Assembly: GCA_010692645.1 (NCBI GenBank)
Contig: JAAHGS010000013.1
Location: forward strand, 18,741 to 82,740
DNA from: Symploca sp. SIO2E9
GTDB lineage: Bacteria; Cyanobacteriota; Cyanobacteriia; Cyanobacteriales; Coleofasciculaceae
DNA: 64,000 nt
Direction: 5' to 3'
Shown here: piece after piece, positions 38,935 through 46,622 of the stretch
Layout: the number at the start of each line of letters is the position of its first letter
Position numbering within the stretch: position 1 is the stretch's first letter
Notes under the pieces: model-generated
The model's input: only the letters and a program-made list of their open reading frames with translations
Database searches by the model: none
What the model was told of the DNA's origin: nothing
Position numbers and translations under genes: made by a program

Positions 38935-39138
38935 AATCCTTTTTGAGCTGGAGGAAAAATAATGCAAAGGAGTTAAGCTCACTCTAACACAGGCTATAGT
39001 GTGAAGTTTGTGACCTAATCTGACACCAAATCGAAGATTTCTCGTGAGGCTTCTGAGCAACTCCCGGTAACCTGTCGCACACAGTAGCTTATCTCTAACA
39101 CTATTTTAGAAAATTGCTATGAGCATATAAAAGAGATA

Positions 39139-39165
39139 GGGGGAGGGGGAGATGGGGGGAGGGGG
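39139..39165 (+). other. Potential G-quadruplex tract
   Basis: Five G, A, five G, AGAT, six G, A, five G: four runs of at least five guanines with loops of 1, 4 and 1 bases. This is a very strong quadruplex-forming pattern. It lies about 200 bp upstream of the protease start codon, with G-richness on the opposite strand to that gene. Confidence 0.7.
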
Positions 39166-39192
39166 AGAAAGAATTAGCAAGTCCTGCAAGAA

Positions 39193-39228
39193 GCCCCACG
39201 GAAAGTACCCGAAGGGTCAGCATGGGAT
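39193..39228 (+). mobile_element. Decayed IS605-type end hairpin
   Basis: GCCCCACGGAAAGTACCC, GAA, then GGGTCAGCATGGG resembles the perfect CCCCACGCTGNACCC-GAA-GGGTCAGCGTGGGG hairpin found after cyanobacterial tnpB genes. Inner (ACCC/GGGT) and outer (CCCA/TGGG) stem parts survive and the middle is mutated. Only this end is recognisable. Confidence 0.35.
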
Positions 39229-39528
39229 GAATTGCCTGTGTGAGTGGCGCAGCCACATCAATCGTCCTCTGGTATACTTATCTCAAGTAGCAAAGCCTAA
39301 AATGCTGGCTACACGGAGTACCTAGACAACTGAAGATATGGGGTTTTACTTCGGATGTAGTTAATCAACGATGATGCCTCCTGTAAGTAAAATCTTCAAG
39401 GAAAATAGGCGAGTAGTACTAATGCTATTCAAGTGGGGCTAGACGTGTTCCCCACTATAAAACGCCCCCTGTGGGAAAAAAGGAGTACCACGAAGGAAGT
39501 TCACCGAATCCTTGCGGAGCCAGAAGCC

Positions 39529-39557
39529 TACACTTACAAAGAAGAGAAGTGTAGGTA
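39529..39557. other. Hairpin downstream of the putative variable region
   Basis: CCTACACTT pairs perfectly with AAGTGTAGG around an 11-base loop, about 80-110 bp past the TIR-FGE stop codon. Retroelement-diversified genes often carry a hairpin close downstream of the variable region, but this one is further away and longer-looped than the described cases. Confidence 0.4.
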
Positions 39558-39637
39558 CGTCACTATACTTTCCCTCCAAAAATCTAGCGACCGCCTGACG
39601 GCGGACCAAAGGGCAAAAGGGCAAAAAGTGCAAAGGG

Positions 39638-40978
39638 CTACATAGTCCTGGCACCAACACAGACGACACGAAAACCAATAAAGTCGGCGACATCGACGCG
39701 CCCGAAATTGCTGATGTGGCGAGACGCACAACGGCAGAAAACAGGATAGTATAACCATGAACCACCGCGCAGCACTTTGATGTCATTGCTACCAGTGCCT
39801 CCTATCCAAGCGCTGCCATCTGTCGGCGCGCCCTTGTAGTTATTATGCCAATCATCGAAACACCACTCCCACACATTCCCGTGCATATCATATAAGCCAA
39901 AACCATTCGCCGGAAAACTACCTACTGGCGTGGTTTCCCTTCTATATTTTCCTGCTGGCTCCGAAGCATAGGTTCTTATGGCATCATAATTTGCTAACTT
40001 GTCAGTGATAGTTTTACCACAGTGAAATGGGGTTTTCTCTCCGGCACGACAGGCATATTCCCATTGAGCCTCACTGGGTAAACTATAGCTGCGTTCTGCC
40101 TGATTTTGATTGAGCCTTTTACAAAATTCCATCGCCTCATTCCAGGAAACCCTTTCTACAGGCCGTTTATTTCCCTTAAAGCGAGATGGATTTTTACCCA
40201 TCACTTGTTGATACTGTTCCTGGGTGACTTCAAACCTACCCATAAAAAAAGTTGGCACCTTTACATCATGCTGCGGACTTTCATCTTTATATCGACCTTT
40301 CTCCCAGGCTGGAGAACCCATTTTAAAAGAACCACCAGGAATTTCCACCATTTCCAGGCTTATACCATTACCCAAGTCCTCCTTAACAATCTTGGCTTTT
40401 CTGTTAGGCTCGCCTTTAACTACCTCTCCCTTTGCATCCACCCTCACCGTTTCAAACTCAACCGTTGACAGGGGCAATCCTAATGCTTTTTCCTCTCCAC
40501 TGGTTGTAGTGAGGTGGGTAGGGAATTGATACTTAATAGCTCTGAGTAGGTTCTCAAAACCATCCGCTTCCCAATAGTCCAACCACTGGATATCTTGCAG
40601 GGATATCCCATACTCTGCTTGTTGCAAAGCTGGAACTTCACAATCCTCTAGCTTGAGTGGAATTAAATAGATTGTCCCAGGCACCCTTTCGGCATATATA
40701 TTGAGAGCTAGTCTTAACTCTCTGGTGACATATCCTTGCTTCCTTACAGAGTTGTTTGAAAGGCAAGCTATGAAGATCTGACTTTGCTTGATCGCTTTTG
40801 GGATTTCCTCACGCCAATTCTGTCGAGCGATGAGGTCTTTCTTATCCAACCAGGGTTTATAACCTTTGGCTCTGAGCCGTTCATATAGTTTCAGAACTTG
40901 GGGCTTATCCTCACTGGCGTGAGCCAGAAAAATTTGGATGCGATTAGCCCTTCGGGCTAGCGCGGAGTGATCGCTCAT
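39638..40978 (-). CDS. TIR domain fused to formylglycine-generating-enzyme-like (C-type lectin fold) domain
   Basis: The start is the ATG with AAGGAAG seven bases upstream; a TTG one codon earlier is possible. Residues ~12-130 are a TIR domain (IQIFLAHASEDKPQVLKLYERLRAKGYKPWLDKKDL; IFIACLSNNSV; the conserved Glu in YVTRELRLAL is the residue that is catalytic in TIR NADases). Residues ~195-440 are an FGE/SUMF1-type C-type lectin fold (MVEIPGGSFKMGS, RFEVTQEQYQQVMG, LPSEAQWEYACRAG, NGFGLYDMHGNVWEWCFDDW). The last 40 residues, between VLRGGSW and IGFRVVC, look like a diversified region: unusual residues (LYYPVFCRCASRHISNF) stand where such domains often have Asn. It likely senses ligands and signals through TIR (inference). 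Confidence 0.88.
   Translation of the reverse strand: MSDHSALARRANRIQIFLAHASEDKPQVLKLYERLRAKGYKPWLDKKDLIARQNWREEIPKAIKQSQIFIACLSNNSVRKQGYVTRELRLALNIYAERVPGTIYLIPLKLEDCEVPALQQAEYGISLQDIQWLDYWEADGFENLLRAIKYQFPTHLTTTSGEEKALGLPLSTVEFETVRVDAKGEVVKGEPNRKAKIVKEDLGNGISLEMVEIPGGSFKMGSPAWEKGRYKDESPQHDVKVPTFFMGRFEVTQEQYQQVMGKNPSRFKGNKRPVERVSWNEAMEFCKRLNQNQAERSYSLPSEAQWEYACRAGEKTPFHCGKTITDKLANYDAIRTYASEPAGKYRRETTPVGSFPANGFGLYDMHGNVWEWCFDDWHNNYKGAPTDGSAWIGGTGSNDIKVLRGGSWLYYPVFCRCASRHISNFGRVDVADFIGFRVVCVGARTM
39655..39790 (-). other. Putative retroelement-diversified variable region
   Basis: The 3' end of the TIR-FGE gene has the layout of a variable region. Conserved GGSW and IGFRVVC frames bracket codons that nearly all end in C or T and have unpredictable first two bases (TAC, TAT, GTT, TTC, CAC, ATC, AGC, TTC, GTC). 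Those are the codons expected if AAC/AAT in a template were mutagenised at adenines. No template repeat or reverse transcriptase is present in the window, so any retroelement must act from elsewhere. Confidence 0.45.
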
Positions 40979-41188
40979 CAAAACTTCCTTTTCTTCTCAC
41001 CTGCAAGATTATTTCCTCAGCAAAGCCTGTAGTTCTTCTACTTTCGCTTCTGCTGACTCAATGACACATCCGAAGAACATCCTAAATACCGTGCCAAAGC
41101 ACTAACAAGGTTGATTTTATTTCGGTTCAGCAACAGAAATAGTTGGCTCTCCCGTACATGTGGTGATAATAAAATTTTATATATTGTA

Positions 41189-41259
41189 GGGTGGGTTAGG
41201 CGCGGGTCATAATTTGTGAATTCTAGTATTGTTTTCCTATCAGCGCCGTAACCCACCAA
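41189..41259. mobile_element. Short inverted-repeat element (GTGGGTTA type)
   Basis: GGGTGGGTTAGGCGCGG at the left edge pairs with GCGCCGTAACCCACC at the right edge, making an imperfect 15-bp inverted repeat around a 40-bp core. Repeats of this form are scattered through many cyanobacterial genomes. It lies between the TIR gene and the WD40 gene. Confidence 0.5.
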
Positions 41260-41333
41260 AGATAATTTGTAGTCTGATTTACAGTTTTCACCAAGATCTC
41301 TGGAGAGCCAAATAGTTTTGGGCGATGAACTTA

Positions 41334-44300
41334 CTAGGGCTCTGGAAGACTCGAGTTTTGCTCCATGGGAACACACAAATGGCGATCGCTACTCCTAACT
41401 TTTCTGTTGCTTTCTAAATAGTCTTGCAGCCAACTACAGCTTTTGTCTAGGAGATCCTCCAAATCCAAATTCCAAATAATTACCTGATTATCCTGACTAG
41501 CTGAGGCTAAAACTTTACCGTCACTGCTCCAGTTGACACTAGTTACGCGCTCTGAGTGTCCTGCCAAAGTTTTAATCAGAGTGTCATCAAGCCGCCATAG
41601 CTGTATCTTGTTATCCCAACTAGTTGTTGCCAAAATTTCACCATCAGGGCTAAAGCTAACTTTGGCAACACTATCGGTATGTCCTGCCAGGGTTGAGAGA
41701 GGTTCTCCCTGAGTACTCCACAATTTAACTGTATTGTCATAACTGGCTGAGGCTAGTTGCTGGGAGTCAGGCGTAAAACTGACATCTAAAACCCAATTGC
41801 TATGACCTTTCAAGGTTTTCAGCAACTTTCCCTTGGATGTCCACAGCTTGACGGTATTATCGTCACTAGCTGAAGCTAGGAGTTTGCCATCAGGACTAAA
41901 GCTAAGAGCATTCACACGCTGTTGATGTCCTGTGAGAGTCTTGAGTAAATTTCCTTGAAGATCCCACAGTTTGACAGTTTTGTCTCGACTAGCAGAAGCA
42001 ATTAACTGACTATCAACAGAGAAGCTAACATCCAATACCCAATCCCGATGCCCCTTTAAGGTTGCCAGTAAATTACCTTGGCGCTCCCAAAGCTTGAGAG
42101 TTTTATCCCTACTGGCAGAAGCAATCAACTGACCATCGGGAGAGAAACTGATGCTATAGATGCGATCGTTATGCCCTTTTAAGGTTTTGAACAGTTTACT
42201 GCTGCGCTCCCAAAGTTTTATAGTACCGTCATTGCTAGCTGTAGCAATTAGTTCGCCATCTGGGGAAAATTCGACATCCCTAACATCATCCTGATGCCCC
42301 TGCAAAATCAAGCGAGACTGCTCTCTAAAACGCCAAAGTTTAACAGTTTTATCATTACTGGCTGAGGCAAGAGTAGGGACTCTTAAGTGTTCTAATTTGG
42401 GCTTAGGAATTTGGGATTTGGGATGTTTTAAATGTTGCTCAGATGTACTAGTGCCTAATTGTTGAGCAAATTCACCTAATCCAAAATCTAAAATCGGTAA
42501 TCCCCAATTATTATCGGGACTAAAACTCACCGCAGTAGCACTATCGCTATGTCCTTGAAAAGTTTTTAATAAGCTGCCGTTGAGGTCCCAGAGCTTAACC
42601 GCATTTTCAGCACTGGCAGAGGCAATCAACTGACCATCAGCACTAAAAGCAACTCCAAACACCCAACGCTTATGTTTGGGGAAGGTTTTGAGCAGCTTGC
42701 CTTGATCATTCCAAAGTTTGACTGTGCGATCATCACTGGCAGAGGCGATTAGTTGACCATTAGGAGAAAAAGCTACAGAGTTAACCTTACCAGCGTGCCC
42801 TACTAGAGTTTGCTCCAATTTTCCTGCCAGTGTCCACAATTTAATTGTCTGATCTTCTCCAGCAGAAGCAATTATCTGACCATTGGGGCTAAAGCTTACC
42901 CATTTGACCACGCCCTTGTGACCTTGAAAAGTTTTCACTAACTTACCGTTGATTGTCCAAAGTTTGACAGTGCCATCGCCACCAGCAGAAGCCAAAAGCT
43001 GCCCATTTGGACTAAAACTAATGCTATAGATATGACCAACATGACCCCTAAAACTTTGCACTTGAGTGCCATCTCGACGCCAGATTCTGAGGGTACTATC
43101 CCAGCTACCAGAAGCAATCAGCTGACTATCTCGACTAAAAGCTACACTGGTGACACTGGAGAGATGACCCTTAAGGGTAGCAACTAAAGTGCCATCTGGA
43201 TGCCAGAGTTTGACAGTTTTGTCTCGGCTAGCGGAGGCAATTAACTGACCATCGGGAGAAAAACTGACATTGGAGACTATATCGCTGTGCCCTTCGAGGC
43301 GATTACGCTCGGAAGCTCCGTAAACTGCTTGCGAGAGGGCAGTTACCACCTGGAGGCGGACATCTGGTTGCACCTGTACTGAATCAGCCTCTTTTCCTTG
43401 CAAGAATCTTGCGGCTCTGAGTCCCTCAAGCAAGGCATCAAATTTCTTATTAGAAACAAAAAGAGCCTCCGAAGAGGCACTCAAAGCACTTAGGTGAGCA
43501 TTTATCCAGAGTTCATCTGCCTGCTTCCTTAATCTCTCTGCTCGCCATCCCAAGCCAGCAGAGGTAAATGCCATAACTGCCATCGCTGCGCCAACTGCCA
43601 TCGCCCGCAGCCGCTGCCTACGAACCCGCGAAAGTTCACTGGCACTTCCTTCTAGCTTTGCCAACAATTGCGATTGAGACCTCTGCTTGGATTTGAGGCG
43701 AATCGGTTCAACTAGATAATCATGAACTAGCTGATATCTGTCTGGTTGTGAGCGCAATCGGAATACTAAACCAGAACCTATCAAGATCTTCAAAATTAAG
43801 TCAAGTCTTTTGCTACAGCTGGGATGATGGTTGTTTTTGTTCCCGAAATTCCCCCAGGGATTAATCTTGCCGCTGTTAGCTAATCGATTATCTGACAGAT
43901 GAGGCTCAAGGGAAGGAGAACAGGAAATACTACTAGCCAACTCGGCTTGAGTTTTCAAAGGCCTTGTACCTCTCTCATCAGTCAAGGAAAATAAAACTTG
44001 CCAGAGAGTATCTTCGTTTTCAGTTCCACAATCTTTAATTAGGTTGGAGAGGGTACGCTCTACTAAAACAGCGACAGGATAGGCTCCAAGAGCCTGATAT
44101 TGCTTGAGGGTGGTAATTTTTTCTGCTTGTAGCTCAGCACCAACTACTTGCAATTCGATCAGGCGTACTGCCCCTGAATTTCCTGTCAAGTCCTGCACTA
44201 ACCTCTCAATCAGAGAGGCCTCTAATTGGAAGTGGGAGGCTGTTGCCAAAGTATAAATGACGTTTTTAGCGTCTTCTGGGGACAGGTTCCCTAGAGGGTA

Positions 44301-46622
44301 ACGTAGCTTGCAATCGAGAATATTGTTGTTGATAGCCTCGAGATTGCTATAACGTTCACATTCCAATAAATAATGCAGATAATCTTCCCTTAGCGATAAG
44401 ATTAACTTTACGAAGGGCAGATTCAGGCAATTAACCAAGAAATCATAAAATTGACGTCGTTCGACGAGATTCTCACAAACAAAAAAAAACTCTTCAAACT
44501 GGTCGAAAATTAGTACTGTTAGCAAATGTTGCTCACCAGCCTGTCGCAGTTTTAGTAAAATTTTTTGGAGCTTAGAGGCTTGAGTGGTTGGTGAAGACTT
44601 TCCCGAGGGATGATCAATAGAATTCGGCTGTTGCCAAGGTGGGGATTGATGGCTAGCGATGTTGAGAGTTGTCACTTGCTTTTTCGCTAAAGCTTCTGTT
44701 AATAGTGCTTCTAACTCACCAATCCAATCCTTGTAAACTTTTTGTACCACTGGCACTGCTATTCTGGCACCAATAATTCGTCTTTCTAAAGCTGGTACCA
44801 AGCCAGCATTAATTAAAGAACTTTTGCCAACACCGGAACAACCGTGAATTACTGTGAGTTTGTGGTCATTGCGGCTCAGGCGCTCAAGCAAGCGATTGAC
44901 ATCAGGTTGACGCCCAGCTGCTGCTATTTGTACGGGCAATTGTCCTGGGTGAATTTCGGTTGTGAAATCGCCAACTCCTCGGCTATGCCATTGGGGCTGT
45001 AGGGGGGCAGCACCAAGGAATGGAGAAAATCCATACTGTTGCTCAAGTGAGCGTCGCTCTTGCTTGAGTTTAAAGGCTTTTAGGTATTGCTTTTGTTCTA
45101 GGTAGAGCGATCGCAATTCTTCTAAAATATCAATATAAAACTGTGGATACTCTTGTACGGATACTCCACCAGGGGATTTGTTCTTCAGCAAAGGCTCTAG
45201 GTCAATTGCTTCCTCTAGAGCTGTGATTGCTGCCGATGAGAGACCTAAGTTCCTTTGTGCTTTTGCCTTAAGCAGTAGATATAATCCTCGATGCTGAGGC
45301 TCAGGTGATGGGGATTGCCAGAGTTGTTGTAGGGCAGCTGTAGCTAAGTCTCTGGCGTCTTCCCAATTTGATTGCCCCTGAGCAACAGCTGCCATAAAGC
45401 CGTAGACTTGAGCCAATTGAACTCGATTGTTTTGGATTAATGGCAACTCCAGAGATTTGAGAGCCAAAGCCTGTAGCTCTGTCCAGCGTTGCAACTGTTG
45501 GAGTACTTCGCCGAGTACAATTGTCAACTGAGCAACTTGTTCTAAGCAGCCAGCGGCAGCAAATGCCTCAATGCTTTTACTCAAGGCATCCCTCGCTTGC
45601 TCCCACTTGCTGTTACTAGCAAACCTTTGTAATTGGGCTTGGCGGCAATAGCACAAGCTGAGGTGATGCAGTAGTAGTCCCATACGCTTTAAGGAGGAAG
45701 GGCAGTCAGTTTTATCCTTAGGAGTAGAAGTAGAGTGGCTGTTGTGATTGTCCCAGGCAGAATCTGTTTCCTGAACATTGGGATATAGCCCATCTCTGAG
45801 TTGATAGAGGTCTTGGTTTTCAAGCAACTGAAGCTGAATTTCTCCTCTATCCTCCCATTGCTGCTGCCAAAAATCTAAACTATGCTGATATTGCTCTAAA
45901 GCAAGATCAATCTGATTGTTACTAAAAGCATCTCGTCCCAGAATAAATTGCCAGGTGGCGATTAATTCTGGTTCTAAACTAATCCCTCGGGAGTGTAAGT
46001 CTCTCAAGGCTGATTCGATTTCCTGGCGTCGGCGGCAGGCAGGTGCTAAATCTAGAATTTTGTTGGGTATAAACTCTCCTAAATCACTCTTTAAAAGAGT
46101 GGTAAACAGTTCATCTGCTGTTTGCTGCCACAAACTTAGTAAATCTTCGGTAGTAAATTCAAACTTAATCGAAGTGGCTGCCCAACTCTTGAAATCAGGG
46201 GCAAATCTCGCTAATTTCTGTAGTACTTCGTCGGATACCCATAATACTATCGGGAAGTTCAAAGTTTTGCGGAATTCGTCTCTAACCTGATTAGTCGAAA
46301 TTAGCAATTGGTCTAATGCTGCTACTAAATTTAGACCGAAGACAATCAAGGCAGATGTCTGTTGATCGCCTCGTGCATTAAGAATGCTAGAGTATAGGGC
46401 TAATGTTGATTCTTGCAAGACCAACTCACTTAGCGGTACCTTAGTCAGTTCTTGCAGCTGTTGCCGCATTTTCTCTTTGCAAGTCTCATAATTGCAGCGC
46501 ACTAATATAATTGAAAATTGTCCTTGAGACAGAGAAATGGCACGAGATAGCGTTGACAGAGCCTTTTTATTGGCTGTCGCTACTTGTTCTGATCGATATT
46601 GTTGTGGATATTGCTCCCTCAT
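41334..46622 (-). CDS. STAND NTPase with 14 WD40 repeats
   Basis: Of 1762 residues, ~1-200 are an N-terminal domain seen in cyanobacterial STAND proteins (SRAISLSQGQFSIILVRCNY). Next comes a TPR-like helical part (~200-540). An nSTAND NTPase follows at ~570-900, with Walker A HGCSGVGKSSLINAGLVPAL and Walker B LTVLIFDQFEEFF. A hydrophobic helix (VGAAMAVMAFTSAGLGW) and a coiled stretch lead to fourteen WD40 units (GHxxxVxxVSFSPDGQLIASASxDxTVKLW), enough for two seven-bladed propellers. Repeat 7 is interrupted by ~45 in-frame residues of repeat-derived DNA. STAND proteins oligomerise when a ligand meets the sensor repeats; the output partner is unknown, and the downstream TIR gene (same strand) is a candidate. 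Confidence 0.92.
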   Translation of the reverse strand: MREQYPQQYRSEQVATANKKALSTLSRAISLSQGQFSIILVRCNYETCKEKMRQQLQELTKVPLSELVLQESTLALYSSILNARGDQQTSALIVFGLNLVAALDQLLISTNQVRDEFRKTLNFPIVLWVSDEVLQKLARFAPDFKSWAATSIKFEFTTEDLLSLWQQTADELFTTLLKSDLGEFIPNKILDLAPACRRRQEIESALRDLHSRGISLEPELIATWQFILGRDAFSNNQIDLALEQYQHSLDFWQQQWEDRGEIQLQLLENQDLYQLRDGLYPNVQETDSAWDNHNSHSTSTPKDKTDCPSSLKRMGLLLHHLSLCYCRQAQLQRFASNSKWEQARDALSKSIEAFAAAGCLEQVAQLTIVLGEVLQQLQRWTELQALALKSLELPLIQNNRVQLAQVYGFMAAVAQGQSNWEDARDLATAALQQLWQSPSPEPQHRGLYLLLKAKAQRNLGLSSAAITALEEAIDLEPLLKNKSPGGVSVQEYPQFYIDILEELRSLYLEQKQYLKAFKLKQERRSLEQQYGFSPFLGAAPLQPQWHSRGVGDFTTEIHPGQLPVQIAAAGRQPDVNRLLERLSRNDHKLTVIHGCSGVGKSSLINAGLVPALERRIIGARIAVPVVQKVYKDWIGELEALLTEALAKKQVTTLNIASHQSPPWQQPNSIDHPSGKSSPTTQASKLQKILLKLRQAGEQHLLTVLIFDQFEEFFFVCENLVERRQFYDFLVNCLNLPFVKLILSLREDYLHYLLECERYSNLEAINNNILDCKLRYPLGNLSPEDAKNVIYTLATASHFQLEASLIERLVQDLTGNSGAVRLIELQVVGAELQAEKITTLKQYQALGAYPVAVLVERTLSNLIKDCGTENEDTLWQVLFSLTDERGTRPLKTQAELASSISCSPSLEPHLSDNRLANSGKINPWGNFGNKNNHHPSCSKRLDLILKILIGSGLVFRLRSQPDRYQLVHDYLVEPIRLKSKQRSQSQLLAKLEGSASELSRVRRQRLRAMAVGAAMAVMAFTSAGLGWRAERLRKQADELWINAHLSALSASSEALFVSNKKFDALLEGLRAARFLQGKEADSVQVQPDVRLQVVTALSQAVYGASERNRLEGHSDIVSNVSFSPDGQLIASASRDKTVKLWHPDGTLVATLKGHLSSVTSVAFSRDSQLIASGSWDSTLRIWRRDGTQVQSFRGHVGHIYSISFSPNGQLLASAGGDGTVKLWTINGKLVKTFQGHKGVVKWVSFSPNGQIIASAGEDQTIKLWTLAGKLEQTLVGHAGKVNSVAFSPNGQLIASASDDRTVKLWNDQGKLLKTFPKHKRWVFGVAFSADGQLIASASAENAVKLWDLNGSLLKTFQGHSDSATAVSFSPDNNWGLPILDFGLGEFAQQLGTSTSEQHLKHPKSQIPKPKLEHLRVPTLASASNDKTVKLWRFREQSRLILQGHQDDVRDVEFSPDGELIATASNDGTIKLWERSSKLFKTLKGHNDRIYSISFSPDGQLIASASRDKTLKLWERQGNLLATLKGHRDWVLDVSFSVDSQLIASASRDKTVKLWDLQGNLLKTLTGHQQRVNALSFSPDGKLLASASDDNTVKLWTSKGKLLKTLKGHSNWVLDVSFTPDSQQLASASYDNTVKLWSTQGEPLSTLAGHTDSVAKVSFSPDGEILATTSWDNKIQLWRLDDTLIKTLAGHSERVTSVNWSSDGKVLASASQDNQVIIWNLDLEDLLDKSCSWLQDYLESNRKVRSSDRHLCVPMEQNSSLPEP
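42376..42512 (-). repeat. In-frame repeat-derived insertion inside WD repeat 7
   Basis: The WD unit is split after SFSPD. About 45 residues (from NNWGLPILDFGLGEF to KLEHLRVP) intervene before LASASNDKTVKLW resumes. The DNA has the TTTAGATTTTGGATTAGG and CCCAAATCCCAAATTCC character of short dispersed cyanobacterial repeats, unlike the surrounding gene. The frame is preserved. Confidence 0.7.

What the first reader, a model, noticed from the sequence alone, without database searches (positions are those of the whole stretch)
39638..40978. TIR-FGE fusion with a 3' end resembling a retroelement-diversified variable region
The C-terminal FGE (C-type lectin) domain has the frame of known diversity-generating-retroelement targets, VLRGGSW...IGFRVVC. 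The residues between are a non-consensus mix, and most variable codons end in C/T with scattered first two bases, as adenine mutagenesis of AAC/AAT would give. No reverse transcriptase or template is within 64 kb, so this would be a remote target. A diversified sensor fused to a TIR effector would be a variable recognition-signalling receptor.
Basis: partly seen in the sequence, partly recalled or inferred. Interest (0 to 1): 0.75.

Follow-up and report, generated by a model that had tools for sequence, protein, structure and literature searches.

The report
Orphaned hypervariable TIR immune-type receptor
The gene's last 110 bases carry the imprint of a bacterial mutation machine that rewrites binding sites, but that machine cannot be found in this genome or in 21 relatives, so the gene looks like one of 16 receptors left behind by, or only visited by, a diversifying element.

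Summary
ORF 39638-40981 (minus strand) is TIR_2 plus FGE-sulfatase. Its C-terminal RGGSW...GFRVVC segment (39659-39769) has the codon pattern of a variable region (VR) of a diversity-generating retroelement (DGR). It is one of 16 such genes in the genome. In eight ortholog pairs of this gene set (two involving this genome), VRs differ at 37% of codon positions 1+2 but 7% of position 3, against 6% and 13% upstream (pooled Fisher p=4e-29).

"Remote target of a DGR" is only half right. The 98%-complete draft assembly contains no DGR reverse transcriptase, Avd or template repeat. None of 22 family genomes has the reverse transcriptase; five control genomes of the same order do. Four relatives, including the sister species, keep truncated avd genes directly after a VR, so cassettes were lost there. 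Non-template positions among this genome's VRs have drifted about four times more than in active DGRs.

Best reading: a DGR-written receptor whose writer is gone, now probably fixed. TIR-bearing DGR targets are already published; new is a family-wide set of VRs that diverged between species without a resident reverse transcriptase. Main uncertainty: a missed or episodic plasmid-borne DGR.

The parts
39638..40981 (-). TIR-FGE fusion gene (TTG start at 40981, alternative ATG at 40978)
   Evidence: ORF; Pfam TIR_2 and FGE-sulfatase
40547..40933 (-). TIR domain, aa 17-145; E88 is the candidate catalytic glutamate
   Evidence: TIR_2 at E=1e-26; E88 of TREL aligns with the DEL motif of Cat1; enzymatic activity not tested
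39662..40354 (-). FGE-sulfatase domain (C-type-lectin fold), aa 210-440
   Evidence: Pfam E=1e-55; closest solved structures PvdO and T. denticola variable protein 1
39659..39769 (-). DGR-type variable region, RGGSW...GFRVVC
   Evidence: 17 of 18 variable codons end in C/T; mismatches concentrated at adenines of a foreign DGR template; paralog VRs differ at codon positions 1-2
39617..39640 (-). TAGCCCTTTGC motif at and after the stop codon, shared by VR genes; candidate cis element, function unknown
   Evidence: 13 of 16 VR genes here, 11 of 16 in G001, and in active control targets of G030 and G035
39002..41346 (.). Segment absent at the syntenic place in G001, G014, G016 and G019: lineage-specific gain of the gene (or loss elsewhere)
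   Evidence: Breakpoints from blastn against four relatives; no target duplication or terminal repeats seen

Best explanation
The gene encodes a TIR effector fused to a C-type-lectin-fold (FGE) binding domain. Its last about 110 bp were written by adenine-directed mutagenic retrohoming, as in DGR target proteins. The DGR that wrote it (reverse transcriptase, Avd, template) is no longer resident in this lineage, so the VR is now probably a fixed, slowly decaying product. It is one of 16 such receptors dispersed in the genome with TIR, kinase, CHAT-NACHT and AAA partners. Presumed working: the variable face of the lectin fold binds a ligand, and the TIR domain then acts as effector. Shown here: domain architecture, VR codon signature, divergence confined to codon positions 1 and 2 in orthologs of sister genes, absence of the machinery from the assembly, and avd relics in relatives. 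Inferred: ligand binding, TIR activity, and the time of DGR loss.
For: VR signature. Ortholog VRs of sister genes differ at positions 1-2 but not 3. No DGR RT in this genome or 21 relatives, with five positive control genomes. No template here, although the same model finds templates in controls. No Avd here; truncated avd directly after a VR in G001, G010, G011 and G018. Non-template positions drifted about 10% between same-class VRs against about 2% in active DGRs.
Against: The assembly is a draft of 383 contigs. Orthologous VRs in genus g7 differ completely between species although none has the machinery, so a single ancient loss cannot explain the set; loss must be recent and repeated, or the DGR visits. 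Complete DGR cassettes occur on cyanobacterial plasmids. The drift comparison uses non-independent pairs and could reflect several templates. The window gene has no syntenic ortholog in the four relatives checked, so its own VR was not tested between species.
Confidence: 0.62

Rival explanations
1. The DGR is still active. Its cassette sits in an assembly gap or on a plasmid or other mobile element that comes and goes, and rewrites the chromosomal targets in trans.
For: Ortholog VRs changed after species splits in genomes without a resident RT. Five cyanobacterial plasmids carry DGR RTs, with Avd and FGE targets annotated beside them in four. PMC10907252 gives evidence for trans activity of DGRs. 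The assembly is a draft.
Against: None of 22 family genomes, some in 10-20 contigs, holds the RT. Avd is absent or truncated in all. Third-position drift among own VRs exceeds that of active DGRs.
Confidence: 0.22
2. VRs were written long ago; what differs between species now is due to exchange of whole VRs between paralogs or strains (gene conversion, horizontal transfer) and sorting of old alleles.
For: The 3' end after the VR differs between the C78 orthologs of this genome and G001, which looks like an exchange. VR genes are numerous and dispersed.
Against: No two VRs in one genome are more than 68% identical in the core (56% in this genome), so no donor copy is visible.
Confidence: 0.09
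3. An ordinary FGE-like domain under strong positive selection on its surface, with no retroelement history.
For: The RGGSW...GFR frame is part of the FGE family itself.
Against: Positions 1-2 are saturated while third positions stay unchanged (pooled p=4e-29); mismatches fall on adenines of DGR templates; avd relics follow VRs in four relatives.
Confidence: 0.03
4. Another reverse transcriptase of this genome (UG4, UG19 or the CRISPR-associated RT) does the diversification.
For: UG4 and UG19 RTs and a Cas1-linked RT are present here.
Against: The sister species G001 has 16 VR hits but no UG4. No template-like sequence was found near them or elsewhere in the assembly.
Confidence: 0.03

Closest known systems
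[quoted passage not shown] 2020, PMC7517822)
   Same: C-terminal lectin-fold domain with a 3'-terminal VR; N-terminal signalling domains including TIR-like; targets dispersed in the genome; one Nostoc paralog with only remnant TR-VR homology
   Different: There targets were tied to an RT and template in the same genome; here neither is found, in 22 genomes of one family.
DGR-diversified putative antigen sensors of multicellular bacteria (Dore et al. 2024, PMC10907252)
   Same: FGE/CLec sensors with conflict-system effectors, TIR included; trans-acting targets
   Different: That genome has resident DGR RTs and observed diversification.
Treponema denticola variable protein 1, TvpA (PDB 2y3c)
   Same: Same FGE-type lectin fold and VR position
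   Different: No TIR domain; surface lipoprotein with a resident DGR (PMC10907252, background).
TIR-FGE protein of Microcystis viridis FACHB-1342 (L166)
   Same: Match over nearly the full length, aa 11-446, 55% identity
   Different: Different VR residues; whether its genome has a DGR was not tested.

Membership tests
DGR target (variable protein) | VR at the 3' end of a C-type-lectin-fold gene | tested here: met
   VR 39659-39769 ends 18 bp before the stop codon; FGE fold
DGR target (variable protein) | Variation confined to template adenines (codon positions 1-2 of NNY) | tested here: met
   Met against foreign templates and between paralogs; between-species test met for sister genes only
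DGR target (variable protein) | Matching template repeat in the genome | tested here: not met
   VR model finds only the 16 VRs, but templates in controls
DGR target (variable protein) | DGR reverse transcriptase in the genome | tested here: not met
   with positive controls
DGR target (variable protein) | Accessory Avd | tested here: not met
   Absent here; truncated relics in G001, G010, G011, G018
DGR target (variable protein) | Observed diversification within a population | not testable with these tools
   No reads or same-species strains available
Formylglycine-generating enzyme (catalytic) | Both active-site cysteines (human C336, C341) | tested here: not met
   C341 kept; the C336 place holds Tyr411 within the VR in the alignment (cysteine roles from general knowledge)
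TIR effector | TIR fold with the conserved glutamate | tested here: met
   Pfam TIR_2; E88 aligns with Cat1
TIR effector | NAD+ cleavage or signalling activity | not testable with these tools
   Needs an assay

The most novel reading that the evidence does not exclude
A whole cyanobacterial family keeps a large repertoire of adenine-diversified immune-type receptors that went on changing after its species split, although no member has a resident DGR reverse transcriptase. Diversification would then come from a visiting, trans-acting element or from an unrecognised adenine-directed mechanism.
Probability: 0.2. Interest if true: 0.82.

Novelty: new variant of a known kind. Interest (0 to 1): 0.52.

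Why it matters
If the writer is gone, these genomes preserve a frozen record of what DGR diversification produced, and they show that receptors can outlive their mutator. If the writer visits from plasmids, RT-based surveys of DGRs miss many live targets, as the metagenome survey PMC8144416 concedes for remote targets. Either way, whether TIR-lectin proteins are diversified antigen sensors could be tested in genomes without a resident DGR.

Tried and rejected
UG4 RT as driver: absent from the sister species, which has 16 VR hits. A DGR RT hidden among the 16 PF00078 hits: motif and family checks show none. Motif-4 pattern hits in G004, G008, G010 and G015: short frames or unrelated genes, not RTs. 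Assembly break at the VR hiding the cassette: only two own contigs end within 500 bp downstream of a VR (C22, C242), and neither tail carries avd; a gap elsewhere is not excluded. Template on viral contigs: zero exact matches to the class A 3' framework. Insertion of the gene by a recognisable transposon: no target duplication or terminal repeats seen. Structure prediction: VR residues 409-429 below pLDDT 50, so no surface mapping was attempted. Papers: none found on DGR VRs in these genera.

Full report
1. What is there. The ORF at 39638-40981 on the minus strand encodes a 446-447 aa protein. Pfam assigns TIR_2 to aa 17-145 and FGE-sulfatase to aa 210-440. The closest solved structures of the C-terminal domain are PvdO and Treponema denticola variable protein 1, by sequence and by fold of a moderate-quality model. 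The C-terminus reads VLRGGSW LYYPVFCRCASRHISNFGRVDVADFI GFRVVC, with the VR at 39659-39769; 17 of 18 variable codons end in C or T. The TIR glutamate E88 aligns with the DEL motif of Cat1. In the alignment with human FGE, C341 is kept, while the place of C336 (serine in the C336S mutant entry) holds Tyr411 inside the VR, so catalysis as an FGE is unlikely (cysteine roles from general knowledge).

2. It is one of a set. The assembly (G000: 7.75 Mb, 383 contigs, 98.2% complete) has 21 FGE-sulfatase places. Sixteen share the VR frame, and a sequence model of these VRs finds exactly those 16 places. Their N-termini include TIR, kinase, CHAT-NACHT and AAA domains. Within classes, VRs mostly agree at framework and third codon positions and differ at positions 1 and 2.

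3. The signature is adenine-directed. Compared with the template of a DGR on a Nostoc plasmid, this VR is changed at 25 of 33 template adenines and 11 of 72 other bases. Gap placement was optimised, so I give this test less weight. The stronger test is orthologs of sister genes: in eight pairs (two between this genome and G001, six between other relatives), VR codons differ at 37% of positions 1+2 and 7% of position 3, while upstream codons differ at 6% and 13% (pooled p=4e-29). The two pairs involving this genome alone give p=2e-8. The pairs were picked from the list to avoid reusing genes as far as possible; they are not a random sample. Positive selection on an ordinary domain would not leave third positions unchanged. 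Three ortholog sets with frozen VRs serve as internal controls.

4. The writer is missing. PF00078 finds 16 RT places here; none has the DGR motif, and those examined are group II intron, CRISPR, UG4 and UG19 types. A profile of five DGR RTs of the same order finds no DGR RT in any of 22 family genomes (best 4e-33, 341 aa, read as a CRISPR-type RT by its likeness to the Cas1-linked one here). A motif-4 pattern gives seven matches in those five genomes and no RT match in the 22. The VR model finds templates in controls G025 and G030 but none here. Avd is absent here.

5. Relics show loss. In G010, G011 and G018, avd breaks off at about codons 20, 44 and 70 directly after a VR; in G018 the contig ends about 45 bp further on. 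These are decayed cassettes in the canonical order VR-avd-(RT-template). In active control DGRs, VR pairs differ at about 2% of third positions; same-class pairs here differ at about 10%. That fits cessation, although several templates with different third bases, or non-independence of the pairs, could contribute.

6. What does not fit a single ancient loss. In genus g7, with two genomes in 10-20 contigs, orthologous VRs differ completely although no RT, Avd or template was found. Loss must then be recent and repeated, or the DGR visits on mobile elements. DGR RTs do lie on plasmids of Anabaena, Nostoc, Fischerella, Microcystis and Acaryochloris. Exchange of VRs between copies is possible, but no donor copies are visible.

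7. The gene itself is a local gain. In G001, G014, G016 and G019 the neighbouring S41 protease and nSTAND1-WD40 genes are adjacent without it. So no syntenic ortholog exists there to test its own VR.

8. How it most likely works. By analogy with DGR variable proteins, the lectin fold presents the variable residues as a binding face, and the TIR domain is the effector. This is inferred, not shown.

9. Known and new. TIR-bearing lectin-fold DGR targets and remote targets are described in cyanobacteria (PMC7517822) and as putative antigen sensors (PMC10907252). One Nostoc paralog with remnant TR-VR homology away from any RT is noted in PMC7517822. A family-wide set of orphan VRs without any RT was not found in the papers searched (supplements were not readable). 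I therefore file it as a new variant of a known kind and not as a target of an extant DGR, because two defining features (RT and template) were tested and not met.

Noticed in passing
39617-39640 (minus strand); same place in other VR genes: A TAGCCCTTTGCCCTT-like motif directly at and after the stop codon is shared by 13 of 16 VR genes here, 11 of 16 in G001 and active control targets, though it is noncoding; a candidate homing element or a dispersed repeat.
   Followed up: partly
L012:244-1338 (G000:C376) and L014 (G000:C362:134136-135014): An intact UG4-type reverse transcriptase and a second copy with an internal stop; scattered, often broken copies in five other family genomes.
   Followed up: partly
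L013:256-2379 (G000:C268): A UG19-type (DRT-like) reverse transcriptase of about 708 aa.
   Followed up: no
window 41334-46622 (minus strand): nSTAND1-WD40 protein of 1762 aa directly upstream of the TIR-FGE gene; conserved in synteny in four relatives that lack the TIR-FGE gene.
   Followed up: partly
L292, L298, L305, L314; L294, L300; L330, L343, L320: Three ortholog sets whose VRs are frozen between species (84-96% identical) while other VRs in the same genomes are fully changed.
   Followed up: partly
L125/L270 and L266 (G001 C249 and C274): Two avd fragments share about 26 bp at their broken ends (TACTGGATATTCTACGTTATCAGACC), which suggests two avd copies or a rearrangement at that point.
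   Followed up: no
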